Source: Rhodothermus bifroesti (GTDB lineage Bacteria; Bacteroidota; Rhodothermia; Rhodothermales; Rhodothermaceae). Taken from it: 64,000 bases of DNA. Positions 39,444 to 62,521 of this stretch are shown piece by piece. The notes beneath the pieces were generated by a model that saw nothing but the letters and a program-made list of their open reading frames with translations, was not told the DNA's origin and did no database searches. Location: assembly GCF_017908595.1 (NCBI RefSeq), contig NZ_JAGKTL010000003.1, positions 186,001 through 250,000 on the forward strand, written 5' to 3'. The stretch's first letter is position 1. Each line of letters starts with the position of its first letter. The translations under genes and the position numbers were made by a program.

Positions 39444-39457
39444 GGAAACGTTTCCAT
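39442..39457 (+). promoter_or_regulatory. LacI-family operator O1
   Basis: ATGGAAACGTTTCCAT is a perfect 16-bp palindrome with the central CG typical of LacI/GalR/CcpA operators. It overlaps the last two bases of the -10 box and the likely start site. An identical copy lies 43 bp downstream (centre to centre), about four helical turns. Confidence 0.9.
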
Positions 39458-39484
39458 CCGAGCGCTTTATTTTTTTGGTTGGAA

Positions 39485-39500
39485 ATGGAAACGTTTCCAT
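39485..39500 (+). promoter_or_regulatory. LacI-family operator O2
   Basis: Identical copy of the O1 palindrome, ending 10 bp before the ATG of the regulator gene. At this position it would act as a roadblock or support looping with O1. Confidence 0.9.
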
Positions 39501-39510
39501 TTTGCACCAT

Positions 39511-42466: not shown

Positions 42467-42472
42467 CGTAAA

Positions 42473-42511
42473 GCGCTCCGGGGCTATGCCTAAAGGCGTG
42501 CCCCGGAGCGC
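42473..42511 (+). promoter_or_regulatory. Intercistronic hairpin before the TonB receptor
   Basis: A perfect 12-bp GC-rich stem (GCGCTCCGGGGC with GCCCCGGAGCGC) with a 15-base loop, between the CBM9 stop (42466) and the TonB ATG (42528). No T-run follows, so it is not a classic terminator. It may mark an mRNA 3' end or a stabilising and partial termination point that tunes expression. Confidence 0.7.
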
Positions 42512-42527
42512 CTACCTTATCACAGCG

Positions 42528-45212: not shown

Positions 45213-45222
45213 TAGCACAAGC

Positions 45223-48200
45223 ATGATGTTCAAGCACTGCTGTGGTTTGGTGGCATGGTCTATTGCTTGGGTTTGGGCAGCGCATGCACAGCACTTGGAA
45301 CCGGTAACACCACCCCAGTGGCGTAGCCAAATCAGTGCTGAGCGCATGGGGCTGCACGATGCCAATCGCATCCGGACCATGTTTTACAACTTTGGCATGG
45401 TGGGCAACTTTGAGGTTAATCCCGATCTAAGCGTTTTCCACTCGGTTGAGGTGCCCAAAGGCATTGGACTGAATTATTCGGATGGCATTACCCCGTTTGT
45501 GCTTACGCGGGTAGCAAGGGCTTCGAATCCAAACGACTCGATTTATGTGATGCTCACGGGCTATCGGGAGCGACAGGCGGTCGACCCCTTTCACCCCGGG
45601 CGCCAACTCCGCTTTGAGCCTCGGCCAGGCTTTTTTGAACCAGATCCTATGATTAACCGAGGTCGCTCGATAGCAGTCTCGAACGATCCCCGTACCTGGC
45701 CAGGTGCTGTTGATGCTGCGGGCAATCCCCGCCAGGGTGTTTCGCCAGAGCAGTGCTGGTATGACAAAATCAATGATCCGGACGACCCCGGCTGGTGCGG
45801 CTCTTGGAATGGCTACTTTGGCAAACGCCCTAATGCCGATCAGGAGTCGTTTTTTGTGATGGACGATAATTTCTACGCCACCTTTGATTTTTACCCAGAT
45901 GCTCGGGACCAAACGCGGCGCGGTCTTGGCCTGCGGGTTGAAGTGCGTGGCTTTCAGTGGTCTAATCCCCAAGCCCAGAATGTCATCTTCTGGCACTACG
46001 ATATCATCAATGAAAGCACGACGGACTACCCGAACATGATCTTCGGGCTTTACATGGACTCGGGCGTAGGGGGCTCGCAGCTCTCATGCGACGGGGTCTA
46101 CGAAAGCGACGACGACAACGCGTTCTATAATACCGAGCTGGGATTGAACCTGGTCTATACGTGGGATAAAGGTGGCCATGGCGTCAGCCTGCGCTCCACC
46201 TGTGAACCTACAGGCTACGTGGGATATGCCTATCTGGAAACTCCTGGAAATCCCTTTGACGGTTTCGACAACGACGAAGATGGCATCACCGATGAACGCC
46301 GCGACAGCGGTCCAGGTCAGCGTATCGAAGGCCAAGAGGCCATTCGGGCTTATGTCATGCAGCATTACGACCTGGCACGGTTTGAGCGGGCTTATGGTCC
46401 ACTAGAAAACCGACCTGCGTATCTGGCAGGCGTTTGGTGGACGGGCGACGAAGACCTTGACTGGGTTTGTGAAGCACACGACACCGGTGCTGATGGCATT
46501 TTTGCAGATCCAGAGGAAGGCATCGAGCCAGATACGGGCGAGGGGGACTGCATCCCTACCGAGGGGGAGCCCAACTTTGACCGCACCGACATTACCGAAA
46601 GTGACCAGATCGGCCTGACTGGCTTTAAGATGAACCGCATTCGTCCCGGTACCGGCTCACCGGCTACGGAGACCGACAACATCGTCTTTTTCATGGATCA
46701 AAACGAATGGCCTAAGCGGCTCTATCAGCAGTTTACGCATCCTGACCCGGCTGTTCGTTTCGATCCTCCCCTAGTGCTGAACTACAACATCGGCTTTCTT
46801 TTTGCTTCTGGACCTTTTGCGCTTAAGGCCGGTCAGCGAGAACGGTTCAGCTTGGCGCTAGCTTACGGAGAAGACCTAATCGACCTGGAAAGCACCGTGC
46901 GTGTTGTCCAGTCGATCTACAATGCCAACTATCAGTTTGCTACTCCGCCTCCAGCGCCAACCGTTCAGGCTTATGCTGGCGATGGTTTCGTAACGCTCAT
47001 GTGGGACAATCGGGCCGAAACAGCTGTCGACCCGGTCACAGGTGAGCGCGACTTTGAAGGCTACCGGATCTACCGGGCCACCGATCCTAACTTTCTCGAT
47101 GCGCAGCTTATTCGGGATGCTCGGGGTGGGGGACCCGTGGGTAACGGACGGCCGATTGCCCAATTTGACTTGATTAATGGTATTCGGGGTTTTTCGGAGC
47201 TGGCGGTGCAGGGCGTGCAGTACTGGTTGGGCGAAGACAACGGCATTCGGCACGTTTGGACGGATTCAACAGTCATCAATGGTCAGCTCTACTACTACGC
47301 CGTAACCGCCTACGACCGGGGTGTGGGACCGCCGTTTAACTTTTATCCTTCCGAGAATGCCATTTCGGTCTCGCGCACGGTTCGCGGCGGTACGATCCTG
47401 CCACGTAATGTGGTGGCTGTAAGGCCTAATCCCCCGGTACCCGGATATATTCCAGGTGCGGTAGTCGAAGGGAGCTTGCGTCAGCTATCTGGCCGTGGCG
47501 TGGGTACAGTGCAGCTGCGCGTAGTGCACCCCGACCGCGTTCCCGAGGGGCATGTGTTTCGCTTGACGTTTGACGCCCCCACCGACAGCATTCGCGCCCA
47601 GTCTTATCGGTTGGTAGATGTTACCACAGGTGAAGTGCTGTTCGAGCATGGACGAGACCTTGAGGGGGCGGGCACGGGACCAGTTGGAGCTGGTCTGCTC
47701 CCAGTCATTCAGACAGCCCTCTGGCCTGAGGTCGATACACTGGCCAGCGGATTTACGGCTGAGAGCCAAACCCGTGTGCGCCTGCGGCCTTTGTATCAAA
47801 GGACGCGCTCCCCAAATCTGCGCCGACCTGGCTACCCAGAGGACCTGCTCATTGTGTTTGCCAACGAGCCGCTCGACACGTCACGCGCGGCCATTGGCAT
47901 GCCGGCTACGCCAGCGCACTTCAAGGTGATCACGGCCGACGGCAGGTGGCAGTTTGATTTTCGCTTTCGGGATGTAAACCGAGACCGCACGCTCAGCGCC
48001 GACGGAGAGTTTATCGAAGTGCTGCTGCCGGAGCGCGAAGGCGGCCCCTTGATCCCTACCTGGCGCATCTTCTACGATGCTGCGCGTACGCCTGCTGACG
48101 CTATGCCGCCCGGTCAAGGTGACGTGTATCGACTCCGCATGCGGCTGCCGCTAACGGCAGAAGACGTCTTCGAGTTTACCACCCAAGGGGCCTACGTGGA

Positions 48201-48540
48201 TGCTGCGCAGGCGCGCGATCAGCTTCGCGAGCAGGAGCCGTATGTTGTTCCCAATCCCTATGTAGCCGCTGCGGCTTTTGAACCTGAACGCTTTGCTGTA
48301 AGCGGACGCGGTGAGCGCCGTCTGGAATTTCGCAACATTCCGGCAGGTGCCACAATCCGGATTTACACTGTGCGTGGCGAGCTCGTGCAGACCCTCCATC
48401 ACGACGGCTCCAGCATCGGTATGGTGCCCTGGGATCTACGTACCAAAGACAATTTGGAAATCGCGCCGGGGCTTTACCTCTTCCACGTTGAAGCACCAGG
48501 TGTGGGCGAATACATTGGTAAGTTTGCTGTCATCAAATAG
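45223..48540 (+). CDS. Very large secreted T9SS protein with FN3 domain, 1105 aa
   Basis: Starting at the ATG at 45223 gives signal peptide MMFKHCCGLVAWSIAWVWAA. No enzyme motif is visible. Residues about 50-330 are beta-rich and aromatic. An acidic DxDxDG calcium-type loop occurs in FDGFDNDEDGITDERRDSG (near residue 350). An FN3-like domain follows near 590-720 (DFEGYRIYRATDPNFLDAQL). Near residues 865-965 comes a module shared with the glucanase at 49595 (GYPEDLLIVFANEPLDTSRA), and at the end a T9SS-type tail (RIYTVRGELVQTLHHDGSSI, GLYLFHVEAPGVGEYIGKFA). It sits where SusD would be, 10 bp after the receptor, and may be the surface glycan-binding partner. Function is not known. Confidence 0.75.
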   Translation: MMFKHCCGLVAWSIAWVWAAHAQHLEPVTPPQWRSQISAERMGLHDANRIRTMFYNFGMVGNFEVNPDLSVFHSVEVPKGIGLNYSDGITPFVLTRVARASNPNDSIYVMLTGYRERQAVDPFHPGRQLRFEPRPGFFEPDPMINRGRSIAVSNDPRTWPGAVDAAGNPRQGVSPEQCWYDKINDPDDPGWCGSWNGYFGKRPNADQESFFVMDDNFYATFDFYPDARDQTRRGLGLRVEVRGFQWSNPQAQNVIFWHYDIINESTTDYPNMIFGLYMDSGVGGSQLSCDGVYESDDDNAFYNTELGLNLVYTWDKGGHGVSLRSTCEPTGYVGYAYLETPGNPFDGFDNDEDGITDERRDSGPGQRIEGQEAIRAYVMQHYDLARFERAYGPLENRPAYLAGVWWTGDEDLDWVCEAHDTGADGIFADPEEGIEPDTGEGDCIPTEGEPNFDRTDITESDQIGLTGFKMNRIRPGTGSPATETDNIVFFMDQNEWPKRLYQQFTHPDPAVRFDPPLVLNYNIGFLFASGPFALKAGQRERFSLALAYGEDLIDLESTVRVVQSIYNANYQFATPPPAPTVQAYAGDGFVTLMWDNRAETAVDPVTGERDFEGYRIYRATDPNFLDAQLIRDARGGGPVGNGRPIAQFDLINGIRGFSELAVQGVQYWLGEDNGIRHVWTDSTVINGQLYYYAVTAYDRGVGPPFNFYPSENAISVSRTVRGGTILPRNVVAVRPNPPVPGYIPGAVVEGSLRQLSGRGVGTVQLRVVHPDRVPEGHVFRLTFDAPTDSIRAQSYRLVDVTTGEVLFEHGRDLEGAGTGPVGAGLLPVIQTALWPEVDTLASGFTAESQTRVRLRPLYQRTRSPNLRRPGYPEDLLIVFANEPLDTSRAAIGMPATPAHFKVITADGRWQFDFRFRDVNRDRTLSADGEFIEVLLPEREGGPLIPTWRIFYDAARTPADAMPPGQGDVYRLRMRLPLTAEDVFEFTTQGAYVDAAQARDQLREQEPYVVPNPYVAAAAFEPERFAVSGRGERRLEFRNIPAGATIRIYTVRGELVQTLHHDGSSIGMVPWDLRTKDNLEIAPGLYLFHVEAPGVGEYIGKFAVIK

Positions 48541-48560: not shown

Positions 48561-49568
48561 ATGAAGCGTGGCTATTGGATTGCTCTGGCAGGAGGGCTGA
48601 TGCTGAGCAGCTTGAGTGCCTTGGCGCAGACGAAAGTGGCTACCACGATCGGGCAAGTGCTTTTAATTGAGCCCAGTGCACGCGCGGCAGCTATGGGAAA
48701 CGCAGGTGTCACCGTAACGGTCGATGCCTTTGGTTTGTACTTTAATCCAGGACTCCCAGCTACGTTGGAACGCTCGGCCGTTGCCATAACCTATAGCCGC
48801 TGGTTGGCCGATTTGAACTACACGTATACAACAGCTTTGGTGCAGTTAGGGTCTAGTGCGCTTTCGCTGGCACTTACTACGCTAAACTCGGGCGAAATGG
48901 AGGTGCGCACGGTTGAGCAGCCGCTGGGTACGGGTGAGCGCTTCACGGTCGAGCAGCTGGTGTTGGGGTTGGGCTTCAGCCGCCGCTTGACGGACCGCTT
49001 TAGCGCAGGCGTGCAGGTTAAGTGGCTACACGAGACGATCTGGCATAGTAGCCTCTCAGCGTTGGCCTTGGATGTAGGCGTGTTTTACGAGCTGCCCTTT
49101 CGGGCTTATTTGGGCGCCAGCTTATCGAACTTCGGCACGCGGGGGCGTTATGATGGAAGGGATTTGCGTGTGCGCTACGATCAGGACCCCAATCGCCATG
49201 GAGACAATAGCAACCTGCCGGCCGCTTTGCACACCGAAAGCTACCAGCTCCCTATCCTGTTTCGGGTCGGGATGGGGTTGCCGCTCGAGCTTGGATCGGG
49301 GCAGCAGCTGCTGCTTGTTGCCGATGCATTTGAACCCAGTTTCAACACCGAAAGCATAAGCCTAGGTGCTGAATGGCAGTTGATGAACGTGTTGGCCTTG
49401 CGGGCGGGTTATCAAAATCTCTTTGAGCAGGATTCGGAGCTGGGATTAACCTTGGGTATGGGTCTGTCGTACGAAGTAGCGAAGCTGCGCTTTCAGTTTG
49501 ATTATGCCTGGGCTAGCCATGCCCATTTGAGCGCAATTCACCGGTTGAGTGCCAGCATTGCCTTTTGA
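48561..49568 (+). CDS. PorV/PorQ-family outer-membrane protein
   Basis: The 335-residue protein has signal peptide MKRGYWIALAGGLMLSSLSA and then the motif LIEPSARAAAMGNAGVTVTV with NPGLPATLERSAVAITYSRW, which mark the PorV/PorQ (LptO) family of FadL-like barrels. PorV delivers cargo from the T9SS translocon to the cell surface and to the sortase PorU. Its place among several T9SS cargoes suggests it handles these exported proteins. An alternative is a barrel that serves transport of the glucan itself. It ends shortly before the glucanase gene. Confidence 0.82.
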   Translation: MKRGYWIALAGGLMLSSLSALAQTKVATTIGQVLLIEPSARAAAMGNAGVTVTVDAFGLYFNPGLPATLERSAVAITYSRWLADLNYTYTTALVQLGSSALSLALTTLNSGEMEVRTVEQPLGTGERFTVEQLVLGLGFSRRLTDRFSAGVQVKWLHETIWHSSLSALALDVGVFYELPFRAYLGASLSNFGTRGRYDGRDLRVRYDQDPNRHGDNSNLPAALHTESYQLPILFRVGMGLPLELGSGQQLLLVADAFEPSFNTESISLGAEWQLMNVLALRAGYQNLFEQDSELGLTLGMGLSYEVAKLRFQFDYAWASHAHLSAIHRLSASIAF

Positions 49569-49594
49569 GCCTCATTAAATCACAAAGCGCGTCT

Positions 49595-52390
49595 ATGTGG
49601 CAATGGCTCGGCTTGCTGCTCGTATGGGGAGGACTGCTGCCCACTGCTTGGGCCCAACAGGCCACATGGACGCTGTGGGAAGGGACCGCAGGGGCAGCCT
49701 ATGAAGCTGCTTCAACGGGCAGTTTTTGGGGGGGCGACACCTTGGTCCTCAGCGGTCCTGGCAACCGATATTTGCCGCTGCGCACGCTTGCCGATGGACA
49801 AGCAGTAGCTCGGCTGGTCTTCCAGCATGTTGAAGGAGGATTTTGGCAGCTGGTCATGTATCAGCCTGAGCGCTTAAGCGACTTGCAAACGCCCGACACG
49901 CTTCGCTTGTGGCTCAACGCGCCAGCTGCACTGCCGGGCGTTTGGTTGCCTGAAATTGCCCTAATCGATCAAGAAGGCCATGCAACGGCTACAGTGGCGC
50001 TCAGGGCAGCTGCAGGGATAGGATGGAACGCGGTCCGTAGCGGCTGGCAGGCCGGTAGCCAGACAGACCTGGCGTTGTCGGTGCGCTACGTGTCGGCGCT
50101 TCCGGCTGAGTTGCCACGCTTAGGCTATCCTGAAGACCTTTGGATCACGTTTGCCGATGCTCCCCTCGATACCTCGCAGGCAGCTGTTGGCTTACCAGCC
50201 CATCCTGCCCGTTTTATGGTGCAAACCTTTTCCGGAACGCAGCTGCCGTTTCGATACCAGGAGCTCAATGGCGATCAGACGCTCAGCGCAGTGGGTGAAT
50301 ATTTCGAGGTGCTTACCCCAGAGCCAGAAACAGGTCGGCTGCGCCCTACGTGGCGTGTAGAAGTTATCCGCACCCCGTCCCGTCCCCCCAGCCTAGGTGA
50401 TCGCTACCTGCTGGCTGTAGATAACGACGGGATCGATAGCGATCCCAACAGCTGGCAAATTTTCCGGATTGCTTGGAGTGATTTTGGCCCCCTGGGTCGT
50501 TTTGATCCTGCTCGCGTAGCCGGCTTCCGCCTGCAAGCTGGTGCAAAGCCCACGTATGGGTTACGTGAGCTGTGGATCGGGCGGGTTGAAGCTGTTAGCC
50601 ATGATCTTGAAGGGACGCCACTGCCACCGCCCCAAGGCGTGCGTGCGGTGGCCGGCGATTCCAGTGTCGTACTTTATTGGGAGCCGGTAGCTGGTGCTGT
50701 GCGCTACCGTGTCTACCGCCAAGATGAGGAGGCGTTGCCTTTTCACTTGCTGGCCGAAGTCGTCCCACCCGAAGATTATGCCGACCTAGCGGTTCGTAAC
50801 GGCCAGACCTATACCTACGTGCTGCGCAGCGTGGATGCTCAGGGGCGCGTGAGCTCCGACAGCGCTCCAGTTCAGGCTACCCCTCAAGCCGGTCTGGAAG
50901 ATGCGTTTTTGGAGCTCGTGCAGCGCCGAGCATTTACCTACTTTTGGCAGGAGGCCAACCCGACCAATGGCCTTATCCGAGACCGAAGCCGTCCTGAAAG
51001 TCCAGCCAGCATTGCGGCCGTGGGTTTTGGGCTTTCGGCGTTGACCGTGGGCATTGATCGGGGTTGGATTTCTCGGGACCAGGGGCGCGGGCGGGTCCTG
51101 CGTACACTGGAGTTTTTCTGGAAGGCACCTCAGCATGCGGCTTCGAATGCAACGGGCTACCAGGGCTTTTTCTATCATTTTCTGGACATGCAAAGCGGGC
51201 AAAGGGCCTGGCAGTCTGAACTCTCTACGATCGACACAGCCCTACTCCTGGCTGGAGTGCTTCACGTGCGGCAGTACTTCGATGGTCAGGAGCCAGAAGA
51301 AGTCCGCATTCGTGCCTTGGCCGACTCGCTGTACCATCGCGTCCGTTGGCGCTGGTTTGCTCCCCGCATGCCGCTACTGGCACTGGGATGGACGCCGGAG
51401 AGCGGCTTTCTGCCTTATGACTGGACCGGATACAACGAGGCCATGATCCTTTATCTGCTGGCCCTTGGCGCTCCCGCAGATTCCTTACCGTCGGCAGCTT
51501 GGCAAGCTTGGACGCAAACCTACCGATGGGCTACGCACTACGGCTACAGTTTTGTGGAATTTCCACCCCTTTTTGGACACCAATACAGTCATGTATGGAT
51601 TGACTTTCGGGGCATTCAGGATGCCTACATGCGCCAAAAGGGCATCGATTACTTCGAGAACAGCCGTCGGGCTACGCTAGCCCAGCAGGCTTATCACCTG
51701 GCTAATCCTAACCGTTATCCGAACTACGGCGCTGACGAGTGGGGATTGACGGCTTCGGATGTGCCCGGAGGTTATCTAGCTCGAGGGGCACCACCGCCCC
51801 AGAACGACGAAGGTACCTTGGCCCCCACAGCCCCTGCCGGTTCAATTGTATTCACACCAGAAGCCTCCCTCTGGGCTTTGCGCACCATGTACCGCCGTTA
51901 CCGCAACCGCTTATGGGGGCCCTATGGTTTTCGGGATGCCTATAACGTGCAGCAAAACTGGTTTGCAACCGACTACCTAGGGATCGATCAGGGTCCAATA
52001 GTGCTCATGATCGAGAACTTGCGCACAGGTGCCATCTGGCGGCGCATGATGACGCACGAAGCCATTGTGCAAGGATTAGCACGGGCAGGTTTTCGTCCTG
52101 TATCTACATCCGCTGCTCCACTTGGCACCTGCGACCCCCAATCGCTCCGGTGTTTCCCTAATCCGTTTACACGGCGTCTCGAAGTGCAGTATGTTCTAGA
52201 AGGGGTAGCACGGGTTACCGTGTACGATGTGCTGGGACGTGTGGTGGCGGTTTATGCACCGCATTGGCAACCATCTGGTTTGCAGCACATGGTGCTAGAG
52301 GCTACGAGCTGGCCGGCAGGTCCCCTACTGCTTGAGCTGCGTGGGGACTCGATGCGAGCAAACTGTCTACTTATTCATCTCAAACCATAA
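49595..52390 (+). CDS. T9SS-exported PF10091 glucanase, likely endo-beta-1,2-glucanase (GH144-like)
   Basis: The ATG at 49595 gives 931 residues with signal MWQWLGLLLVWGGLLPTAWA. Residues about 165-275 repeat the module of the large upstream protein (LGYPEDLWITFADAPLDTSQ). An FN3 domain follows at about 335-425 (VRAVAGDSSVVLYWEPVAGA), then the PF10091 'glucoamylase-like' catalytic (alpha/alpha)6 domain at about 430-835 (RRAFTYFWQEANPTNGLIRD, SAALWTV-type helices, WTPESGFLPYDWTGYNEAMI, HVWIDFRGIQDAYMRQKGID). A T9SS tail ends it (RVTVYDVLGRVVAVYAPHWQ). GH144 endo-beta-1,2-glucanases belong to PF10091. The linkage is inferred from this and from the GH94 partner; the sequence alone does not prove it. 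Confidence 0.85.
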   Translation: MWQWLGLLLVWGGLLPTAWAQQATWTLWEGTAGAAYEAASTGSFWGGDTLVLSGPGNRYLPLRTLADGQAVARLVFQHVEGGFWQLVMYQPERLSDLQTPDTLRLWLNAPAALPGVWLPEIALIDQEGHATATVALRAAAGIGWNAVRSGWQAGSQTDLALSVRYVSALPAELPRLGYPEDLWITFADAPLDTSQAAVGLPAHPARFMVQTFSGTQLPFRYQELNGDQTLSAVGEYFEVLTPEPETGRLRPTWRVEVIRTPSRPPSLGDRYLLAVDNDGIDSDPNSWQIFRIAWSDFGPLGRFDPARVAGFRLQAGAKPTYGLRELWIGRVEAVSHDLEGTPLPPPQGVRAVAGDSSVVLYWEPVAGAVRYRVYRQDEEALPFHLLAEVVPPEDYADLAVRNGQTYTYVLRSVDAQGRVSSDSAPVQATPQAGLEDAFLELVQRRAFTYFWQEANPTNGLIRDRSRPESPASIAAVGFGLSALTVGIDRGWISRDQGRGRVLRTLEFFWKAPQHAASNATGYQGFFYHFLDMQSGQRAWQSELSTIDTALLLAGVLHVRQYFDGQEPEEVRIRALADSLYHRVRWRWFAPRMPLLALGWTPESGFLPYDWTGYNEAMILYLLALGAPADSLPSAAWQAWTQTYRWATHYGYSFVEFPPLFGHQYSHVWIDFRGIQDAYMRQKGIDYFENSRRATLAQQAYHLANPNRYPNYGADEWGLTASDVPGGYLARGAPPPQNDEGTLAPTAPAGSIVFTPEASLWALRTMYRRYRNRLWGPYGFRDAYNVQQNWFATDYLGIDQGPIVLMIENLRTGAIWRRMMTHEAIVQGLARAGFRPVSTSAAPLGTCDPQSLRCFPNPFTRRLEVQYVLEGVARVTVYDVLGRVVAVYAPHWQPSGLQHMVLEATSWPAGPLLLELRGDSMRANCLLIHLKP
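51614..51686 (+). repeat. 73-bp exact repeat, copy 1 (in the T9SS glucanase)
   Basis: Bases 51614-51686 are identical to 55495-55567 in the second glucanase gene. The segment encodes IQDAYMRQKGIDYFENSRRA followed by TLAQ. The flanking sequence 22 bp upstream has only a few third-position differences. Paralogues elsewhere differ clearly at the DNA level. Confidence 0.9.
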
Positions 52391-52402: not shown

Positions 52403-54685
52403 ATGTTGCGCCTGTACCTGGTGCTCCTGCTTACGCTGATTGGCTTTACGACGGCTCGGGCCCAGTCGCTAGAAAAAGCCCGGGAAGATTCTCTGATCGA
52501 AGCGCTGCTGGCCCGCATGACGCTTGAAGAAAAACTTGGGCAGCTCACCCTCTACAATGGAGGGTTGGCGCAAACAGGACCGGTTGTGATGACTGCTGAT
52601 CCAGATGCTGTGCGTCGTGGGAGGGTTGGGGCTGTTATGAATCTTTTTGGTGCGGAAGCAACCTGTGCGCTGCAGCGGCAAGCTGTTGAGGAAAGCCGGC
52701 TAGGCATTCCCCTCCTGTTTGCGTTGGATGTAATTCATGGCTTTCGAACGATTTTTCCTGTACCCCTGGCCGAAGCAGCCACGTTCGATCCCCAGCTGGC
52801 TGAGCAAACTGCTCGTGTAGCCGCGCTTGAAGCTTCGGCGGCCGGGCTGCACTGGACGTTTGCCCCTATGGTCGACATTGCGCGGGATGCACGTTGGGGG
52901 CGCATTGTAGAAGGCAGTGGAGAGGATCCCTACTTAGGATCGCTCATGGCAGCTGCCCGCGTACGCGGCTTTCAGGGGAAGGATCTGCGCGAGCCCTCCA
53001 CCATTATGGCGTGTGCAAAGCACTTTGTAGCTTATGGTGGTGCCGAGGGCGGTCGAGACTACAATACGGTAGACCTCTCTGAGCGTACGCTTCGGGAGGT
53101 TTACCTGCCCCCGTTTGAAGCTGCTGTTCGGGCAGGGGCCCTTTCTGTGATGTCGGCCTTTAACGAGATTGGCGGCATCCCCGCTTCGGCCGATCGGCGG
53201 CTGTTGACCGATGTACTTCGGGGGGAGTGGGGTTTTGAAGGTCTGGTGGTGAGCGACTACACGGCTATCTGGGAATTGCTTTTTCATGGCATTGCGGCCG
53301 ACAGTGCCGAAGCAGGTCGTAAAGCGCTTGTCGCTGGGGTCGACATGGACATGGTTAGCGGCATTTACGTGCACAAGCTGGCCGAGGAGGTGCGGTCGGG
53401 TCGGCTACCAGAGGCAGTCGTGGATGAAGCGGTGCGACGCGTGCTTCGGGTGAAATACCGGCTGGGACTTTTTGAAGACCCCTACCGCTATTGCCGTGAT
53501 CCGGAGCGTGAGCGGCGGTTGTTGTTGGCCGCGGAGCATCGGCGTTTAGCCCGTGAAGTGGCTACAAAAGCCATCGTGCTGCTTAAGAATGAGGGCAACC
53601 TGCTGCCTTTGGCCGATACGCTACGTACGCTGGCCGTTATTGGCGCGCTGGCGACCGATTCAGCGAGTGTGCTGGGACCTTGGGCAGCAACGGGTCGGCC
53701 AGGCGAGGCCGTAACGATCCTTGAAGGCCTTCGGGCAGCTTTGCCCCAGACACGGGTACTCTATGCCCCGGGCTATCCTGAGGCGCCGCCAGGCGGTTTT
53801 CAGGAAATTGTTGCCACTGCTTTAAGCCCCGACACCAGTCGGTTTGCGGAAGCCGTGGCGGTAGCAGCGCAGGCCGATGTGGTCCTCTTAGTGCTCGGTG
53901 AGCACCGAGAGCTCAGCGGCGAGGCTGCCAGTCGGGCTTCGGTAGCGTTGCCTGGGGCTCAGGAAGCGCTGGCCCGACGCATCTTGGCGACAGGGAAGCC
54001 CGTGGTAGTGGTGCTCATGAACGGCCGGCCCTTGGCTATTCCTTATCTTGCCGAAGCTGCACCAGCCATTTTGGAAACCTGGTTTCTGGGCTCTGAGATG
54101 GGGAACGCTGTGGCAGATGTACTTTTGGGTCGGGCTAGCCCAGGTGGCCGCTTACCGGTATCGTTCCCACGGGCAACCGGTCAGGAACCCCTTTATTACA
54201 ACCATAAACCAACGGGTCGACCGCCGCGTGCAGAAGAAAAGTACACCTCAAAGTACCTCGACGTGCACTGGAGCCCGCTGTATCCTTTCGGATACGGCCT
54301 GACCTATACCACGTTCGCCTATCGAAATTTGCGCCTGAGCTCTAGCCGCTTAGGTTTGCAGGATACGTTGCGCCTTACCGTGGAAGTGACCAACACGGGA
54401 ACGCGGGCAGGAGAAGAGGTAGTGCAGCTCTACGTGCGCGACGAAGCCGCCTCGGTCACCCGTCCGGTGCGTGAGCTCAAAGGCTTTCAGCGCGTGGCAC
54501 TTGCACCGGGAGAAACAAAGACCGTGACTTTCGAGCTGCCCGTCGAAGCCCTGCGTTTTTGGGGCTTGGAAAATCGATGGGTGGTGGAACCTGGATGGTT
54601 TACGCTGCAAGTGGGACCTTCGTCGGCAGAAGGCCTCGAAGCCCGATTTGAGGTCTTGGCCCAAAGTACAATTCGATCAAGGTGA
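52403..54685 (+). CDS. Glycoside hydrolase family 3 beta-glucosidase
   Basis: The 760-residue periplasmic enzyme has signal peptide MLRLYLVLLLTLIGFTTARA. Its GH3 N-terminal barrel includes FALDVIHGFRTIFPVPLAEA, RDARWGRIVEGSGEDPYLGS and the nucleophile region EGLVVSDYTAIWEL (Asp285). The second domain (residues about 395-600) provides the acid/base glutamate in GEHRELSGEAASRASVALPG, and a C-terminal FN3-like domain ends at about 750 (EEVVQLYVRDEAASVTRPVR). It would release glucose from sophoro-oligosaccharides. It resembles BglX in layout. The next gene overlaps its stop by one base (TGATG). Confidence 0.94.
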   Translation: MLRLYLVLLLTLIGFTTARAQSLEKAREDSLIEALLARMTLEEKLGQLTLYNGGLAQTGPVVMTADPDAVRRGRVGAVMNLFGAEATCALQRQAVEESRLGIPLLFALDVIHGFRTIFPVPLAEAATFDPQLAEQTARVAALEASAAGLHWTFAPMVDIARDARWGRIVEGSGEDPYLGSLMAAARVRGFQGKDLREPSTIMACAKHFVAYGGAEGGRDYNTVDLSERTLREVYLPPFEAAVRAGALSVMSAFNEIGGIPASADRRLLTDVLRGEWGFEGLVVSDYTAIWELLFHGIAADSAEAGRKALVAGVDMDMVSGIYVHKLAEEVRSGRLPEAVVDEAVRRVLRVKYRLGLFEDPYRYCRDPERERRLLLAAEHRRLAREVATKAIVLLKNEGNLLPLADTLRTLAVIGALATDSASVLGPWAATGRPGEAVTILEGLRAALPQTRVLYAPGYPEAPPGGFQEIVATALSPDTSRFAEAVAVAAQADVVLLVLGEHRELSGEAASRASVALPGAQEALARRILATGKPVVVVLMNGRPLAIPYLAEAAPAILETWFLGSEMGNAVADVLLGRASPGGRLPVSFPRATGQEPLYYNHKPTGRPPRAEEKYTSKYLDVHWSPLYPFGYGLTYTTFAYRNLRLSSSRLGLQDTLRLTVEVTNTGTRAGEEVVQLYVRDEAASVTRPVRELKGFQRVALAPGETKTVTFELPVEALRFWGLENRWVVEPGWFTLQVGPSSAEGLEARFEVLAQSTIRSR

Positions 54686-56136
54686 TGAAAAGATTTCCAT
54701 GGGGATGGATTGGCGTCCTTTTGGTAGGGCTTGGGGGAATGGGTTGCAGGCTGGAGCATGACAGCCCGCAAGCTTCAGATGCGTTTTTAGATACGCTTCA
54801 GGCCCGTACGTTTGCGTTCTTTTGGGAAACCGCCCATCCGGAGACCGGACTGATTCCCGATCGCTGGCCGACGCCTTCGTTTTCAAGTATTGCCGCTGTC
54901 GGGTTCGGCCTGAGTGGTTATCTGGTAGGCGTAGAGCGCGGCTACATCACCCGCCAGCAAGCCGCCGAGCGCATCTATCGCACACTGCGCTTTTTATGGG
55001 AAGCACCCCAAGGTCCAGCTGCCTCCGGTACGGCTGGCTACAAGGGGTTTTTCTACCATTTTCTGGAGATGGATACCGGACACCGCTTCCGGGATGTCGA
55101 GCTTTCCTCGATCGATACCGCGTTGCTGATGGCCGGTGTGCTAGCTACGCAGGTTTACTTTGACGGCAGCGATACGCTGGAGGTGGCTATTCGGGCTTAT
55201 GCCGACTCACTTTTTCAGCGCGTAGAGTGGGATTGGATGCAGCCGCGGGCACCGCTCATTGCCATGGGTTGGTATCCAGAACGCGGTTATCACACGCACG
55301 ACTACACAGGCTACAGCGAGGCGATGCTGCTTTACGTGCTGGCGCTGGGCTCACCGACGTTTCCTGTAGCACCCCAAGCTTGGCAAGCCTGGACGCAGAC
55401 CTACCAGTGGGGGACGTTTTATGGACAGACGTTTGTGCAATACAGCCCACTTTTTACGCATCAGTATAGCCATGTATGGATTGATTTTCGAGGTATTCAG
55501 GATGCCTACATGCGCCAAAAGGGCATCGATTACTTCGAGAACAGCCGTCGGGCTACGCTAGCCCAGCGTGCTTACGCCATAGATAACCCAGGCCGCTGGC
55601 AAGGCTACGGTCCCGACCTATGGGGGCTAACCGCCTGCGACGGCCCGATAGATACCACGCTGGTGCTTAGTGGGCAGGAACGCACGTTTCGAAGCTATGC
55701 AGCGCGTGGCGCCAGTTTGGTTTACGTTCTGGACGATGGGACTCTTGCCCCTACAGCTGTAGGAGGTTCACTGCCCTTTACGCCCGAGCTAGCGCTGGCC
55801 GCGCTGCAAACCATGAAGGCACGCTATGGCGAAGCGCTGTGGGGACAATACGGCTTTCTGGACGCGTTTAACCCGACGTTTCAGGTGACCGATGTGCCCC
55901 TTAAGCATGGACGGGTCATTCCTGGCTTAGGTTGGTTCGATACCGATTATCTGGGAATCGACCAAGGCCCTATCTTGCTTATGGCAGAAAATTACCGAAG
56001 TGAATTGCTCTGGCGCCTGATGCGTCAGAGCCCTTACGTTGTACAAGGCCTACAGCGGGCTGGGTTTACCGGTGGTTGGCTCGAAGAGATAACCCTGCCT
56101 GAACTGCGCGTGGTCATTCACAACCGACAGGAATAA
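54685..56136 (+). CDS. Lipoprotein PF10091 glucanase, likely endo-beta-1,2-glucanase (GH144-like)
   Basis: The ATG at 54685 (a GTG one codon earlier is possible) gives 483 residues with a lipoprotein-type N-terminus (MKRFPWGWIGVLLVGLGGMG, then Cys). The rest is a single PF10091 domain: FLDTLQARTFAFFWETAHPE, YPERGYHTHDYTGYSEAMLL, SHVWIDFRGIQDAYMRQKGI and WFDTDYLGIDQGPILLMAEN. It lacks the FN3 and T9SS parts of its paralogue at 49595. It is probably tethered to a membrane and cuts imported glucan in the periplasm or at the surface. It shares a 73-bp identical DNA tract with that paralogue. Confidence 0.85.
   Translation: MKRFPWGWIGVLLVGLGGMGCRLEHDSPQASDAFLDTLQARTFAFFWETAHPETGLIPDRWPTPSFSSIAAVGFGLSGYLVGVERGYITRQQAAERIYRTLRFLWEAPQGPAASGTAGYKGFFYHFLEMDTGHRFRDVELSSIDTALLMAGVLATQVYFDGSDTLEVAIRAYADSLFQRVEWDWMQPRAPLIAMGWYPERGYHTHDYTGYSEAMLLYVLALGSPTFPVAPQAWQAWTQTYQWGTFYGQTFVQYSPLFTHQYSHVWIDFRGIQDAYMRQKGIDYFENSRRATLAQRAYAIDNPGRWQGYGPDLWGLTACDGPIDTTLVLSGQERTFRSYAARGASLVYVLDDGTLAPTAVGGSLPFTPELALAALQTMKARYGEALWGQYGFLDAFNPTFQVTDVPLKHGRVIPGLGWFDTDYLGIDQGPILLMAENYRSELLWRLMRQSPYVVQGLQRAGFTGGWLEEITLPELRVVIHNRQE
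55495..55567 (+). repeat. 73-bp exact repeat, copy 2 (in the lipoprotein glucanase)
   Basis: Identical to 51614-51686 in the T9SS-exported glucanase, in the same reading frame and same protein position. Confidence 0.9.
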
Positions 56137-56147
56137 CAAGCTGCGCT

Positions 56148-57440
56148 ATGGGCGATTGGCCCTATTCGCGTGCGGCATATTCCCAAGCGCCATTGGTGAG
56201 GGCGGTCGTCCTTTTTTGCCTAGCCGGAATAGCTGCTTGTCATGAACCGGAGCAGACCGTGCAGCTGACCTTTTGGGCTTTTGGCCGTGAAGGAGCACAG
56301 GTAGCTCCCCTGCTTGAATCCTTCGAAGCAGCGCATCCGGGCATCCAGGTCTCCCTCCAGCAAATCCCTTGGTCGGCAGCTTACGAAAAACTTGTCACGG
56401 CCTACGTTGGAGGACAACTGCCCGATGTGGCCCAGATAGGCAATAGCTGGCTGCCCCAGTTTGCAGCACTGCAGGCGTTGGTGGAGCTAACGCCGTGGGT
56501 TGTTCGGGATCGGCTGGATACAGCGGACTACTTTTCAGGCATCTGGGCAACCAACCGCTTACCCCAAGGGCTGTATGGTCTTCCTTGGTACGTAGACACG
56601 CGCGTCCTTTTTTATCGCACCGATTTACTGAAACAGGCTGGCTATGCCACCATGCCGCAAACCTGGGCTGGCTGGGAGCGCCTCTTGCACCGTTTGGTGG
56701 CACCTCCGGTCAATGCTCGCTTTGCGTTGGCATTGTTGCCGGATTGGTCTCCCGTAGTCATTCTGGGGTTGCAACAAGGCGCCACACTGCTGGGAGGCAA
56801 CGGGCGTTACGGCAACTTCCGGGATGAGCGCTTCCGACGTGCGCTGGCGTTTTATGTGCATCTGGTTGACGCACGTTTGGTCCCGCGCTCTGGTGCTACG
56901 CAGCTGGGCAACCTGTACCATGAGTTTGCTCGGGGACAACTGGCGATGTTTTGGAGTGGCCCTTGGAGTGTGGGAGAGTTGCGGGCGCGGTTGCCCGATT
57001 CACTGGCGCTGCGTTGGGCAACCGCGCCGCTACCTGGACCTGAGGGGCCGGGTGTTTCGTTGGCTGGTGGATCAAGCCTGGTCATTTTCCAAAATACCCG
57101 TAATCTAGAAGCGGCTTGGGCCTTGGTGCGGTTTTGGGCACAGCCAGAAGTGCAGCTGCAGTTTTATAGGCTAACTGGCAATCTGCCACCACGTCGCTCG
57201 GTGTGGCAGCAAGCAATCCTGCAGCGTGACCAGCAGCTTGAAGGTTTTTGGCAGCAGCTCGAGCGGATCGAGCCGTTGCCAGCTGTCCCAGAATGGGAAG
57301 CGATTGCAGCTCGCATTCATTACTACGCCGAAGCCACGGCAAGTGGTCTTTTGGGACTCGACGAAGCCCTAGCACGCCTGGATCAGGAGGTAGACCGGAT
57401 ACTGGAAAAAAGACGTCGGATAGCCACCGTACCGCGATGA
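56148..57440 (+). CDS. ABC transporter sugar-binding lipoprotein
   Basis: The 430-residue protein has a lipoprotein signal (LVRAVVLFCLAGIAAC, Cys28). It then shows the family 1 extracellular solute-binding pattern: QLTFWAFGREGAQVAPLLES, FEAAHPGIQVSLQQIPWSAA, GQLPDVAQIGNSWLPQFAAL and GQLAMFWSGPWSVGELRARL. The TonB/T9SS surface system upstream and permeases downstream place it in the periplasm as the receptor for oligosaccharides, probably sophoro-oligosaccharides as in the Listeria homologue. It precedes the first permease with an ATGA overlap. Confidence 0.92.
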   Translation: MGDWPYSRAAYSQAPLVRAVVLFCLAGIAACHEPEQTVQLTFWAFGREGAQVAPLLESFEAAHPGIQVSLQQIPWSAAYEKLVTAYVGGQLPDVAQIGNSWLPQFAALQALVELTPWVVRDRLDTADYFSGIWATNRLPQGLYGLPWYVDTRVLFYRTDLLKQAGYATMPQTWAGWERLLHRLVAPPVNARFALALLPDWSPVVILGLQQGATLLGGNGRYGNFRDERFRRALAFYVHLVDARLVPRSGATQLGNLYHEFARGQLAMFWSGPWSVGELRARLPDSLALRWATAPLPGPEGPGVSLAGGSSLVIFQNTRNLEAAWALVRFWAQPEVQLQFYRLTGNLPPRRSVWQQAILQRDQQLEGFWQQLERIEPLPAVPEWEAIAARIHYYAEATASGLLGLDEALARLDQEVDRILEKRRRIATVPR

Positions 57441-58315
57441 AGCGCTCCTGGACTGAGTTGCGAGCTGCTACTTGGTTTTTAGCCCCAGCGCTGGCGGTGG
57501 TGTTGCTTTTTTTGTTTTTGCCGGCTCTTGCTGCCTGGATGCTTAGCCTAACGGATTTTGATCTCTACACCTTTGCCGAGCCGGCAGCCCTTCGATGGGT
57601 AGGATTACGCAATTACCTGGCTTTGTTGCAAGACGGGCGCTTTTGGAAAGCACTGCAAAATACCCTGATTTTTGTGGGTCTGGGCGGACTGCTTACGCTC
57701 TGCTTAGCCCTTGGGGCTGCCTTGTGGATTCATCAACGATTTGTGCGTTGGAAAGCTTTCTGGCGTATGGTCTACTTTGCGCCTGTTGTGACTTCGCTAG
57801 TGGCTGTGGCTATCGTGTGGCGTTACCTCCTGCACGCGCGCTATGGCTTAGCAAATCAAGCGCTTGCTTGGTTAGGGCTGCCACCCATCGACTGGCTAGG
57901 GGATCCACAGTGGGCACTTCCCGCACTCATCTTGATGGCGGTGTGGAAAAACTACGGGTATGATTTGCTCATTTTTTTGGCTGCACTGCAGGCTATCCCT
58001 GAAGAGCTTTATGATGCTGCCCGAATGGACGGGGCCAGCGTGTGGCAACAGCTGCGCTACGTGACGCTGCCTGCCCTCCGTCCGATGATTGCCTTGGCTG
58101 GACTCATTACGGCCAATGGCTACCTGCAAGTTTTTGCCGAGCCGTACGTGATGACGCAGGGTGGTCCGCTAGACGCCACGCTAACGCTGGTGCTTTTGCT
58201 CTACGAGCAGGGTTTCCGGTGGTGGCGATTAGGCTATGCGGCTGCCTTGGCCTTCGTGCTGTTTGTCTTGATGCTCGGCCTTTCCTGGATGCTCTGGCGT
58301 CAACATAGGTCATGA
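57437..58315 (+). CDS. Sugar ABC transporter permease (MalF-like)
   Basis: The ATG at 57437 overlaps the binding-protein stop (ATGA). The 292-residue protein has six membrane helices and the coupling-helix motif EELYDAARMDGASVWQQLRY (EAA loop) followed by VTLPALRPMIALAGLI. The opening helix (FLAPALAVVLLFLFLPALAA) and GLRNYLALLQDGRFWKALQN are typical of MalF/UgpA-type sugar permeases. It pairs with the permease at 58312. No ABC ATPase gene is in the locus. Confidence 0.93.
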   Translation: MKRSWTELRAATWFLAPALAVVLLFLFLPALAAWMLSLTDFDLYTFAEPAALRWVGLRNYLALLQDGRFWKALQNTLIFVGLGGLLTLCLALGAALWIHQRFVRWKAFWRMVYFAPVVTSLVAVAIVWRYLLHARYGLANQALAWLGLPPIDWLGDPQWALPALILMAVWKNYGYDLLIFLAALQAIPEELYDAARMDGASVWQQLRYVTLPALRPMIALAGLITANGYLQVFAEPYVMTQGGPLDATLTLVLLLYEQGFRWWRLGYAAALAFVLFVLMLGLSWMLWRQHRS

Positions 58316-59149: not shown

Positions 59150-62100
59150 ATGTTGTTTGCTTTACCTCAGTGGCTTGATGAGGCCAATTGGATCAACCGC
59201 AGCGGTTGGCTGCTCCGTCAAGGAAAGCTTTGGAGCTTTTTGGGTGATGATGGCGGGGGTGGTCTAGGCTGGGAACAAATGCTGCTCACGCGCTGGCATC
59301 CAGATCCGGCTGCGCCAGAAGTAGGGTATTTTTTCTACATACGGGATTTGGAAACGAGGCGGTACTGGTCGGCCGGATTGCGTCCAAGCGGCTGGCAGCC
59401 GGAAACGTACACCCTCTACCAAGGACCAGAATGCTGGCGGCTGGTGCGTCAGGATGGGGGCCTTGAGCTTATGCTGGAGGTGTGGCTGTGCGAAATGATG
59501 GAAGTGCGGCGGCTGCGGCTCATCAACCACACCAGCTGCACCCGCCACCTTGAAGTGACCAGCTATGCCGAGCCTGTACTGGCCGATCCTTACGTTGACG
59601 CATGTCACCCTGCGTTTGGGAAGCTTTTTATGCAGACGGCCGCCCTTCCTGATGGACTGGCAGTTTGGCGCCGCGCGCGCAGTCCTGAAGAGCCCAGTAG
59701 GACGCTGGTCCATTTAATCTACGGTCACGAGGGCAAACTAACCTGGGAGACCGATCGACGGCGTTTTTTAGGACGCGGGCACACACTAAGGATACCGGAG
59801 GCGCTCTCAGGACCGTTTCGGCTGAGCGAAACTACCGGCAATGTGCTTGATCCGATTTTGTGTTTACGCACCCAGATCGTGCTTAGGCCTCAAGGCAGCA
59901 AAGAATTACATTTTGGCATGGGCATGCTTGAAGATCACTATGCACTGCCCGTACACCTTGAGCAGTTCCGCTGCAGCCTAACGCAGCTTGGCCCGTCGCG
60001 CAAAGGACAACGCCGTAAAATTTTTGCTGCAGTGCAGCATTTTCGGTCCGCTCCTTATCGAAGCGCAACACCGGAAGGCGTCGGGCCGCTTCCAACAGCG
60101 CCGCTGGTTTACGACAACGGCTGGGGGGGATTTACAGAGACGGGCGATGCATACGTGGTGCGCTTAAGGCCTAAGACTGAGGGCACCCTAGCGCTGCCAC
60201 CAATGCCCTGGGTGAATGTGGTGGCTAACGAACAGGCGGGTTTCATCGTGACCGAGCGGGGGGGAGGCTACACCTGGACGCGAAATAGCCGGACAAATCG
60301 GCTGACGCCTTGGTACAACGATCCAGTGGCTGACCCTTGCGGCGAAGCATTGTATCTGCGCGACGAGGTGGTAGGCGTCTATTGGTCACCACTTCCGGCA
60401 CCGGCTCCTGTCGCAGCACCGTATGAGGTAACGCATGGCATGGGCTACACCCGCTTTCGGCATCACAGCCAAGCACTAGCGCAGGAAGTTTGCTGCTTTG
60501 TGCCCCGAGGCGCTCCTGTTAAGCTGATTTGCCTGCGCCTGCACAATCAAAGCCTGCAGCCACGCCTGCTTTCGGTTTTTTATGTAGCCCGTTGGGTGTT
60601 GGGCGAAACGCTGAGCGATCGCGCCGGCATACGCACCCGCTACTCCCCGACGAATCGGATGATCCTGGCGGAAAAAGAAGGCCGTCCAGTAGCATTTATG
60701 GCTTGCGCTGCCCCAGAAGCAGCTGCTGTGTGGGCTAGCGGCGACGGCCGCAGCTTTTTTGGTGCTGCAGGTCGACCTGAAGCGCCAGAAGCGCTGACGC
60801 ACCACAGGCATCTTAAGGCTCGTTTTGGAGACAGCCTAGATCCCTGCGCAGCCCTGCAGGTGCAGTTGTCCTTGAGCCCAGGAGCGCAGGCCGAGGTCAT
60901 CTTTTTGCTAGGTGAAGCCGTAAGCCAAGCCGAGGCTGGACGTTTAGCTCAGGCCTACAGCCAACCGGAGCAAGTTGCGCAGGCTTTAGCGGAAGTGCAG
61001 CAGTTCTGGGCAGAACTCCGTGGGCATCTCCAGGTGCAAACCCCTTGTGCAGCGCTCAATCTGATGGCCAATGGCTGGCTACTGTATCAAACCGTCAGTT
61101 GTCGGCTTTGGGCGCGTTCTTCGTACTATCAGGCCGGCGGTGCGTTTGGCTTTCGGGACCAGCTGCAAGATGCTGCCGCCTTGGTGTATGTACGCCCGGA
61201 TTGGACGCGACAGCAGCTTTTGCTGCATGCAGCCCATCAATTCCCCGAGGGCGACGTGCTGCACTGGTGGCATCCCGAAGGCCTAGGCGTGCGCACCCTA
61301 TTTTCAGATGACCGGCTCTGGCTTCCCTATCTTGCACTGCACTACCTGCAAGTAACCGGCGATGAAGCACTGCTGGAGGTGCCTGTGCCGTTCGTGCAAG
61401 GACCGCTGCTGCCGCCAGGAGTAACCGAGCAGATCGTGCACCCAACAGCAGGGCCGGTTGCGTCATTTTTTGAGCACTGCCTGCGAGCTATTGATTGCTC
61501 CTTAGAAACAGGCCCGCACGGCCTGCCCCTTATGGGTAGCGGCGACTGGAATGACGGCATGAGCCGCATAGGCATCGAAGGGCGTGGCGAAAGCGTCTGG
61601 TTAGGATTTTTGCTCTATGCTGTGCTGGATGGATTTATTCCCTTGTGTAAGCAACGGGGTGAACAGGAGCGGGCAGCTCGCTACCAGGTTCATCGCGAGC
61701 AGCTCCGGCAGGCTTTGGAGGCGGCTGGGTGGGATGGCGCCTGGTACCGGAGGGCCTACTTTGACGATGGAACCCCGCTAGGCACTCGGGAAGGACCAGC
61801 TTGCCAAATTGATGCCCTGGTTCAGGCATGGGCAGTACTCTCGGGGGTAGCTTCACGCGAACGCGCACAGCAGGCATTTGCCGCTGTAGAAACCTATCTG
61901 ATCGATCCTGCTGCGCGACTTGTGCGGCTACTGACCCCACCTTTTGAGGATATGCACCCACATCCAGGCTACATCCAGGGATACATCCCCGGCGTTCGCG
62001 AAAACGGTGGCCAGTATACCCACGCTGCCTTGTGGGTTGTGCAGGCACTGGCCCGGATGGGACAGCTGGATCGGGCGACCGAGCTGCTGACGTGGATTAG

Positions 62101-62521
62101 CCCCGTAACGCGGACAAAAACACCCGACGACCTCGGGTGCTACCAAGTAGAACCCTATGTTTTAGCAGCCGACATTTATGCCGAACCGCCGCACACAGGA
62201 CGTGGCGGCTGGACCTGGTATACTGGATCGGCGGGCTGGATGTACCGCGTGCTCCTTGAAGAGATCATCGGCTTTGGCATCGAGGCAGGTCGCTGGCTGA
62301 CGTTGCGCCTAAGCTGGCCCAAGGCATGGCCAGGCTATCGGCTCACCTATCGGCACCCCCAAAGTAACACAGAATACCACATCGAGGCCCGTCGCGAAGG
62401 CACACAACCCCACGTCTGGCTGGATGGCCAAGCTTTGCGTTTTGCGTCAACCCACGTGCGGATTCCCCTAGTTCAGGATGGCGCTAGCCACCATGTAGTG
62501 CTTACCCTTCCTGTGATCTAA
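59150..62521 (+). CDS. GH94 phosphorylase, probable 1,2-beta-oligoglucan phosphorylase
   Basis: The 1,123-residue protein has no signal peptide, so it is cytoplasmic. It shows the GH94 layout: an N-terminal beta-sandwich region (residues about 1-590), a helical linker and a catalytic (alpha/alpha)6 domain with AGGAFGFRDQLQDAAALVYV and GSGDWNDGMSRIGIEGRGES (catalytic Asp in the DWND block near 799-802). Blocks such as EVTSYAEPVLADPYVDACHP, TWETDRRRFLGRGHTLR and NSRTNRLTPWYNDPVADPCG match the C-terminal half of cyclic beta-1,2-glucan synthase. Cellobiose phosphorylases are about 800 residues; 1,2-beta-oligoglucan phosphorylases are about 1,110, as here. Product would be glucose 1-phosphate. It ends the operon. 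Confidence 0.9.
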   Translation: MLFALPQWLDEANWINRSGWLLRQGKLWSFLGDDGGGGLGWEQMLLTRWHPDPAAPEVGYFFYIRDLETRRYWSAGLRPSGWQPETYTLYQGPECWRLVRQDGGLELMLEVWLCEMMEVRRLRLINHTSCTRHLEVTSYAEPVLADPYVDACHPAFGKLFMQTAALPDGLAVWRRARSPEEPSRTLVHLIYGHEGKLTWETDRRRFLGRGHTLRIPEALSGPFRLSETTGNVLDPILCLRTQIVLRPQGSKELHFGMGMLEDHYALPVHLEQFRCSLTQLGPSRKGQRRKIFAAVQHFRSAPYRSATPEGVGPLPTAPLVYDNGWGGFTETGDAYVVRLRPKTEGTLALPPMPWVNVVANEQAGFIVTERGGGYTWTRNSRTNRLTPWYNDPVADPCGEALYLRDEVVGVYWSPLPAPAPVAAPYEVTHGMGYTRFRHHSQALAQEVCCFVPRGAPVKLICLRLHNQSLQPRLLSVFYVARWVLGETLSDRAGIRTRYSPTNRMILAEKEGRPVAFMACAAPEAAAVWASGDGRSFFGAAGRPEAPEALTHHRHLKARFGDSLDPCAALQVQLSLSPGAQAEVIFLLGEAVSQAEAGRLAQAYSQPEQVAQALAEVQQFWAELRGHLQVQTPCAALNLMANGWLLYQTVSCRLWARSSYYQAGGAFGFRDQLQDAAALVYVRPDWTRQQLLLHAAHQFPEGDVLHWWHPEGLGVRTLFSDDRLWLPYLALHYLQVTGDEALLEVPVPFVQGPLLPPGVTEQIVHPTAGPVASFFEHCLRAIDCSLETGPHGLPLMGSGDWNDGMSRIGIEGRGESVWLGFLLYAVLDGFIPLCKQRGEQERAARYQVHREQLRQALEAAGWDGAWYRRAYFDDGTPLGTREGPACQIDALVQAWAVLSGVASRERAQQAFAAVETYLIDPAARLVRLLTPPFEDMHPHPGYIQGYIPGVRENGGQYTHAALWVVQALARMGQLDRATELLTWISPVTRTKTPDDLGCYQVEPYVLAADIYAEPPHTGRGGWTWYTGSAGWMYRVLLEEIIGFGIEAGRWLTLRLSWPKAWPGYRLTYRHPQSNTEYHIEARREGTQPHVWLDGQALRFASTHVRIPLVQDGASHHVVLTLPVI

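What the first reader, a model, noticed from the sequence alone, without database searches (positions are those of the whole stretch)
59150..62521. A stand-alone GH94 that resembles the phosphorylase half of cyclic beta-1,2-glucan synthase
Several long blocks (SYAEPVLADP, DRRRFLGRGHTLR, NSRTNRLTPWYNDPVADP, GFRDQLQDAAALVY) read like the C-terminal part of NdvB-type synthases, but here without the GT84 domain and with no signal peptide. Its length of 1,123 fits 1,2-beta-oligoglucan phosphorylase rather than the roughly 800-residue cellobiose type. In a presumed thermophile it could be a heat-stable enzyme.
Basis: partly seen in the sequence, partly recalled or inferred. Interest (0 to 1): 0.65.

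Follow-up and report, generated by a model that had tools for sequence, protein, structure and literature searches.

The report
Beta-1,2-glucan phosphorylase in a utilisation operon
The gene encodes a free-standing enzyme, derived from one module of the machine that makes cyclic beta-1,2-glucan, that now sits in an operon for eating beta-1,2-glucan and most probably cuts imported oligosaccharides with phosphate; the type has been noted before, but its evolution and active site are newly mapped here.

Summary
Window 59150-62521 (+) is an intact 1,123-aa GH94 protein, without signal peptide, GT84 or GH189 domain. [quoted passage not shown] It lacks that module's Rossmann-like RFL insert.

It is the last gene of an operon with two GH144 beta-1,2-glucanase homologues, a GH3 beta-glucosidase, a TonB receptor and a Lin1841-like sugar ABC importer. 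The genome has no CGS and no OpgG, so the role is most likely catabolic: cytosolic phosphorolysis of imported beta-1,2-glucooligosaccharides to Glc1P.

[quoted passage not shown] It belongs to a clade of stand-alone CGS-type enzymes nested within CGS, found in many phyla, nearly always in such clusters; RFL was lost repeatedly. A predicted structure aligns end to end only with CGS and LpSOGP. Active-site residues exclude the cellobiose type; one +1 residue (Tyr941) also differs from SOGP (Arg907).

Prior art: IALB_1177 of Ignavibacterium album was described in 2022 as the same kind of protein in the same kind of cluster. Activity, minimum chain length and heat stability are untested. New member of a known kind, moderate interest.

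The parts
59150..62521 (+). Stand-alone CGS-type GH94 phosphorylase, 1,123 aa, cytosolic
59204..59935 (+). Ndom1/GP1: extra N-terminal beta-sandwich (aa 19-262), corresponds to CGS 1544-1779 and LpSOGP Ndom1
59936..60100 (+). Short linker (aa 263-317; 282-301 low confidence) where CGS carries the ~165-residue Rossmann-like RFL subdomain, missing here
   Evidence: RFL 1847-2012 from PMC10901819
60101..60919 (+). Ndom2/GP2: GH94 supersandwich domain (aa 318-590)
61004..62272 (+). Catalytic (alpha/alpha)6 barrel (aa 619-1041)
61553..61555 (+). Codon of catalytic acid Asp802, aligned with CGS Asp2528; invariant in 66 relatives
   Evidence: PMC10901819, PMC11842490
58312..59145 (+). MalG-type sugar ABC permease
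57437..58315 (+). MalF-type sugar ABC permease (likely start 57437, overlapping the binding-protein stop)
56148..57440 (+). Solute-binding lipoprotein; PDB hits 3uor (371 bits), then Lin1841, the Listeria beta-1,2-glucooligosaccharide-binding protein (192 bits)
54682..56136 (+). GH144 endo-beta-1,2-glucanase homologue; best PDB hit XcSGL (575 bits), clan residues E, F and Y kept
   Evidence: PMC12102758
52403..54685 (+). GH3 beta-glucosidase with signal-peptide-like N terminus; PDB hits include BT_3567 (714 bits) and Lin1840 (584 bits)
49565..52390 (+). Second GH144 homologue, 941 aa, signal-peptide-like N terminus
48561..49568 (+). PorV-like outer-membrane protein (name from own knowledge, not tested)
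   Evidence: conserved in syntenic loci
45169..48540 (+). Large conserved secreted protein without Pfam match, part of the syntenic block
42456..45212 (+). TonB-dependent receptor
40559..42466 (+). CBM9-like protein with possible secretion tail
39415..40527 (+). LacI-type regulator (from sequence; true start probably downstream)

Best explanation
It is a cytosolic inverting glycoside phosphorylase that shortens imported beta-1,2-glucooligosaccharides from the non-reducing end. Inorganic phosphate, held by Tyr956, His958 and Thr1025-Gly1026, attacks the terminal glucose in subsite -1. Asp802 protonates the leaving chain, releasing alpha-glucose 1-phosphate and a chain one unit shorter. The pocket is formed within one chain, between Ndom1 and the barrel, as in LpSOGP. 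Upstream, secreted GH144 enzymes cut beta-1,2-glucan, the TonB receptor and ABC importer bring the pieces in, and a periplasmic GH3 trims part of them. Lineage: the phosphorylase module of CGS was released from the synthase and recruited into catabolism in a common ancestor of a now widespread clade; the RFL insert, which in CGS contacts the synthase N-terminal domain, was later lost several times. Shown by computation: gene, domains, predicted fold, operon, tree, invariant residues. Inferred: reaction, direction, location, substrate. Unknown: minimum chain length and fate of sophorose.
For: Sequence and domains. The operon is tight: MalG ends at 59145 and GH94 starts at 59150. Neighbours match proteins shown to act on or bind beta-1,2-glucan: XcSGL, BT_3567 and Lin1840, Lin1841. 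The block recurs, with variations, in five other genomes of the order. Of 40 stand-alone loci 37 have GH144, importer or partner genes nearby; of 33 full CGS loci 7 do, by GH144 only. The genome has no CGS and no OpgG. All 35 stand-alone cluster enzymes form one clade (SH-aLRT 99); monophyly of CGS is rejected at p 0.024, that of RFL-less forms at 5e-55. AlphaFold2 pLDDT 90.2. Full-length structural match only to CGS (1,030 residues, 2.4 A, 38% identity) and LpSOGP (980 residues, 3.7 A, 13%). Catalytic and phosphate residues are invariant in 66 sequences; Gly664 stands where CBP has Arg362, Tyr1024 and Arg950 where LpSOGP has Tyr1004 and Arg916.
Against: No activity has been measured for this protein or, as far as found, any stand-alone member. 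The loop 800-803 around the catalytic acid has pLDDT under 50. Mapping to LpSOGP residues rests on published numbers and motif spacing, since its sequence could not be retrieved. No cytosolic GH1 of the kind found beside many relatives was found in this genome, so the fate of sophorose is open. Only this genome and one of six others of the genus carry the gene. The window protein and its same-genus relative alone carry R533G and E884A, which could alter specificity.
Confidence: 0.85

Rival explanations
1. It acts mainly on sophorose (disaccharide) or on beta-1,2-glucosides with another reducing-end group, not on chains of three or more units as SOGP does.
For: The +1 site differs from SOGP (Tyr941 for Arg907, small residue 157 for Tyr141). 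R533G and E884A are found only in the window protein and its same-genus relative, with K943Q and N805S rare elsewhere. The genome lacks a match to the GH1 beta-glucosidase that many relatives have beside the gene.
Against: Tyr1024, Gly664 and Arg950 point to an open +2 site as in LpSOGP. Nearly all active-site residues are shared with CGS, which acts on long chains.
Confidence: 0.15
2. It is a phosphorylase for another beta-glucan (cellobiose, cellodextrin or laminaribiose type).
For: GH94 fold; cellobiose phosphorylases align over 744-749 residues at Z about 43.
Against: Ndom1 present; Arg362 and Glu649 of cellobiose phosphorylase are Gly664 and Tyr941 in all 66 relatives; far higher similarity to CGS; neighbours are beta-1,2-glucan genes.
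Confidence: 0.05
3. It is a biosynthetic helper that sets glucan length in trans for a synthase.
For: That is the role of the homologous module in CGS (PMC10901819, PMC11842490).
Against: No CGS or OpgG in this 98.7% complete genome; the operon holds degradative enzymes and an importer; the RFL subdomain that contacts the synthase is absent.
Confidence: 0.03

Closest known systems
IALB_1177 of Ignavibacterium album (Kobayashi et al. 2022, PMC8861115)
   Same: Described there as a homologue of the C-terminal phosphorylase domain of CGS, encoded in a cluster with two GH144 genes and a Lin1841-like binding protein; expected to release sophorose.
   Different: Different organism; that cluster also holds the GH35 enzyme IaSGT. 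Neither protein has been assayed as far as found. Its sequence was not compared here.
[quoted passage not shown] Agrobacterium CGS 8RF0
   Same: Closest solved relative (763 bits; 1,030 residues at 2.4 A, 38% identity); same catalytic residues (D802 = D2528, D670 = D2393).
   Different: No transmembrane, GT84 or GH189 parts, no RFL insert; catabolic operon.
1,2-beta-oligoglucan phosphorylase LpSOGP 5H3Z and LiSOGP Lin1839 (EC 2.4.1.333)
   Same: Same layout with Ndom1, same length, presumably same reaction; Lin1839 sits with a GH3 and a binding protein in an equivalent cluster.
   Different: Distant in sequence (13% in the structural alignment, 34 bits by profile); Tyr941 where LpSOGP has Arg907.
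Cellobiose phosphorylase (GH94)
   Same: Catalytic and phosphate-binding core.
   Different: About 800 aa, no Ndom1, pocket at a dimer interface; Arg362 and Glu649 are Gly and Tyr here.

Membership tests
GH94 | Supersandwich and (alpha/alpha)6 catalytic domains above Pfam cut-off, catalytic Asp | tested here: met
   (388 and 373 bits, cut-offs 23 and 27); Asp802 aligned with CGS Asp2528
[quoted passage not shown]
   1,123 aa, only GH94 domains
[quoted passage not shown]
   about 66 residues between the two matched pieces, against about 245 in CGS; full CGS relatives carry 165-195 (one 233) extra residues there
CGS-type GH94 lineage | Groups with CGS GH94 modules by sequence | tested here: met
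SOGP (EC 2.4.1.333) | Extra N-terminal beta-sandwich Ndom1 | tested here: met
   aligned from residue 14 to 1122 with 5H3Z
SOGP (EC 2.4.1.333) | Belongs to the Lin1839/LpSOGP sequence group | tested here: not met
   34 bits to 5H3Z against 1,131 to CGS and 399 to cellobiose phosphorylase
SOGP (EC 2.4.1.333) | +1/+2 residues R907, Y141, R916, Y1004, small residues at the CBP Arg362 site | tested here: inconclusive
   R916, Y1004 and the small residues have equivalents (R950, Y1024, G664); R907 and Y141 do not (Y941, G157); mapped by published numbers and spacing
SOGP (EC 2.4.1.333) | Phosphorolysis of sophorotriose and longer, not of sophorose | not testable with these tools
   needs an assay
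Cellobiose phosphorylase | About 800 aa without Ndom1, Arg362 and Glu649 in the acceptor site | tested here: not met
Beta-1,2-glucan utilisation locus | SGL, beta-glucosidase, Sop-binding ABC importer and GH94 together | tested here: met

The most novel reading that the evidence does not exclude
The stand-alone CGS-type enzymes are a second family of catabolic beta-1,2-glucooligosaccharide phosphorylases, separate from SOGP and made by releasing a module of a biosynthetic machine. They would hold the +1 glucose differently from SOGP (Tyr941 instead of the Arg907-Tyr141 pair), and the members of the window's genus would have a shifted chain-length preference, down to sophorose itself.
Probability: 0.25. 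Interest if true: 0.55.

Novelty: new member of a known kind. Interest (0 to 1): 0.38.

Why it matters
It gives a concrete, testable case of a module leaving a biosynthetic multi-domain enzyme and being reused for catabolism, with intermediate forms (stand-alone with and without the RFL insert) still present. It also points to a large, apparently unassayed group of phosphorylases from many phyla that could serve in making beta-1,2-glucans from glucose 1-phosphate, if active.

Tried and rejected
LpSOGP was not found by phmmer even at E 10, only by profile. Searches of 245 Clostridia and two narrower searches turned up no obvious SOGP (about 1,100 aa), so a residue-level alignment could not be made. 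One PDB search used a wrong frame and returned porphobilinogen deaminase; ignored. NCBIfam has no model for the protein. The 16S search of the own genome found nothing, so the genus could not be named; R. profundi is unlikely (59.1% G+C, 3.13 Mb in PMC6767994, against about 56% in the window and 2.88 Mb). Charged-versus-polar residue bias was +3.2 and says little about heat stability. Length alone as an argument for SOGP is weak, since stand-alone CGS-type forms share it. The empty searches for the partner protein and GH1 in the own genome had no positive control in the same run, but the same partner query did match other genomes.

Full report
Observation. The ORF at 59150-62521 (+) is intact, 1,123 aa, with the quoted motifs. 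Pfam gives only the two GH94 domains. The best PDB match is the phosphorylase part of Agrobacterium CGS (763 bits), three times the score of cellobiose phosphorylases. There is no signal-like N terminus.

Surroundings. The gene follows MalG by 4 bp and ends a run of same-strand genes starting with a LacI regulator at 39415: CBM9-like protein, TonB receptor, large conserved secreted protein, PorV-like protein, GH144, GH3, GH144, binding protein, two permeases, GH94. The nearer GH144 is closest to XcSGL, a shown endo-beta-1,2-glucanase (PMC12102758). The three clan residues of XcSGL (E239, F286, Y367) are kept; the solved chain has Gln at the first, presumably an inactivating mutation, which I infer from a constant numbering offset. 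The binding protein is close to Lin1841, the Listeria beta-1,2-glucooligosaccharide-binding protein, and the GH3 to BT_3567 and Lin1840. No other GH144 exists in the genome, no CGS, no OpgG. A single MalK-type ATPase lies about 25 kb past the window end and may power the importer.

Relatives. The block is conserved in G001 (same genus; GH94 60% identical) and, with variations, in four other genomes of the order. The GTDB scan gave 80 loci in many phyla. They fall into full CGS (2,700-3,000 aa, with RFL), stand-alone with an RFL-sized insert (mostly 1,240-1,330 aa, +116 to +164), and stand-alone without (mostly 1,100-1,200 aa). Of 40 stand-alone loci, 37 have GH144, importer or partner genes within the held flank, against 7 of 33 CGS loci, by GH144 only. 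The stand-alone group was defined by protein length and domains, not by context, but was sampled by similarity to the window protein.

Tree. On the GP2 plus catalytic region, 35 stand-alone proteins form one clade (SH-aLRT 99) and CGS surrounds it. Holding CGS together is rejected at p 0.024; holding the RFL-less forms together at 5e-55, with at least six changes of RFL state. These are quick trees without bootstrap and with a long outgroup branch, so the nesting inside CGS is moderately supported; that RFL state changed repeatedly is strongly supported, and with CGS outside, repeated loss is the natural reading. Two RFL-bearing short ORFs (L081, L120) group with CGS and may be broken synthases.

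Structure. AlphaFold2 with 66 rows gives pLDDT 90.2. Only CGS and LpSOGP align over the whole length; other GH94 enzymes cover residues 322-1123. By a sequence profile LpSOGP is far off (34 bits against 1,131 for CGS).

Active site. D802 aligns with CGS D2528, D670 with D2393 (residues from PMC10901819). R669, D670, W800, D802, E951, Y956, H958, T1025, G1026 are invariant in 66 sequences. By published LpSOGP numbers and spacing, R950 and Y1024 correspond to its R916 (+1) and Y1004 (+2), and G664 stands where cellobiose phosphorylase has R362, leaving room for +2. Y941, invariant, stands where cellobiose phosphorylase has E649 (an acceptor-site position, PMC7471185; its place in the motif is from my own knowledge) and LpSOGP R907; residue 157 (Gly here, mostly Ser) where they have Q165 and Y141. 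So the site is not of the cellobiose type and is similar, not identical, to SOGP. The window protein and its genus relative alone carry R533G and E884A, and share K943Q and N805S with few others.

Prior art. Kobayashi et al. 2022 (PMC8861115) noted IALB_1177 of Ignavibacterium album as a homologue of the C-terminal domain of CGS in the same kind of cluster, expected to release sophorose. The finding is therefore a new member of a known, apparently unassayed kind. What I add is the clade, its nesting within CGS, the repeated RFL loss and the residue comparison.

Noticed in passing
L035:12379-15411 and about 30 homologues in L037-L131 (not in the window): A conserved ~1,030-1,200-aa protein (F5/8 type C domain, beta-sandwich, (alpha/alpha)6 barrel, motif SYxRSWIRDG) lies next to the stand-alone GH94 in most loci; in Competibacter and Chromatiaceae loci no importer or GH144 gene was found beside the pair. 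It has only weak GH15-like or amylase matches and no close structural family. Possibly a new glycosidase family, perhaps acting on alpha-linked parts of cyclised beta-1,2-glucans.
   Followed up: partly
window 59150-62521, residues 533, 805, 884, 943: R533G and E884A occur only in the window protein and its same-genus relative G001 among 38 stand-alone and 28 CGS sequences; K943Q and N805S are rare elsewhere.
   Followed up: partly
genus of the window (G001-G006): Only G001 of six other genomes of the genus has the GH94 gene: patchy, by loss or transfer.
   Followed up: no
window 56148-57440: The best PDB hit of the binding protein is 3uor, an ABC sugar-binding protein (371 bits), ahead of Lin1841 (192 bits). 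The substrate of 3uor may deserve a check with beta-1,2-glucooligosaccharides.
   Followed up: no
L169:2730-5135 (G176:C495) and similar ~720-800-aa Clostridia hits: GH94 proteins without Ndom1 that score about 660 bits with the stand-alone profile against 350-400 for cellobiose phosphorylase types; the one read (L169) lies beside ABC permeases. An apparently separate GH94 subgroup.
   Followed up: no
L130: A full CGS on a contig of a MAG named Methanothrix (archaeon) groups with bacterial CGS; binning error or transfer.
   Followed up: no
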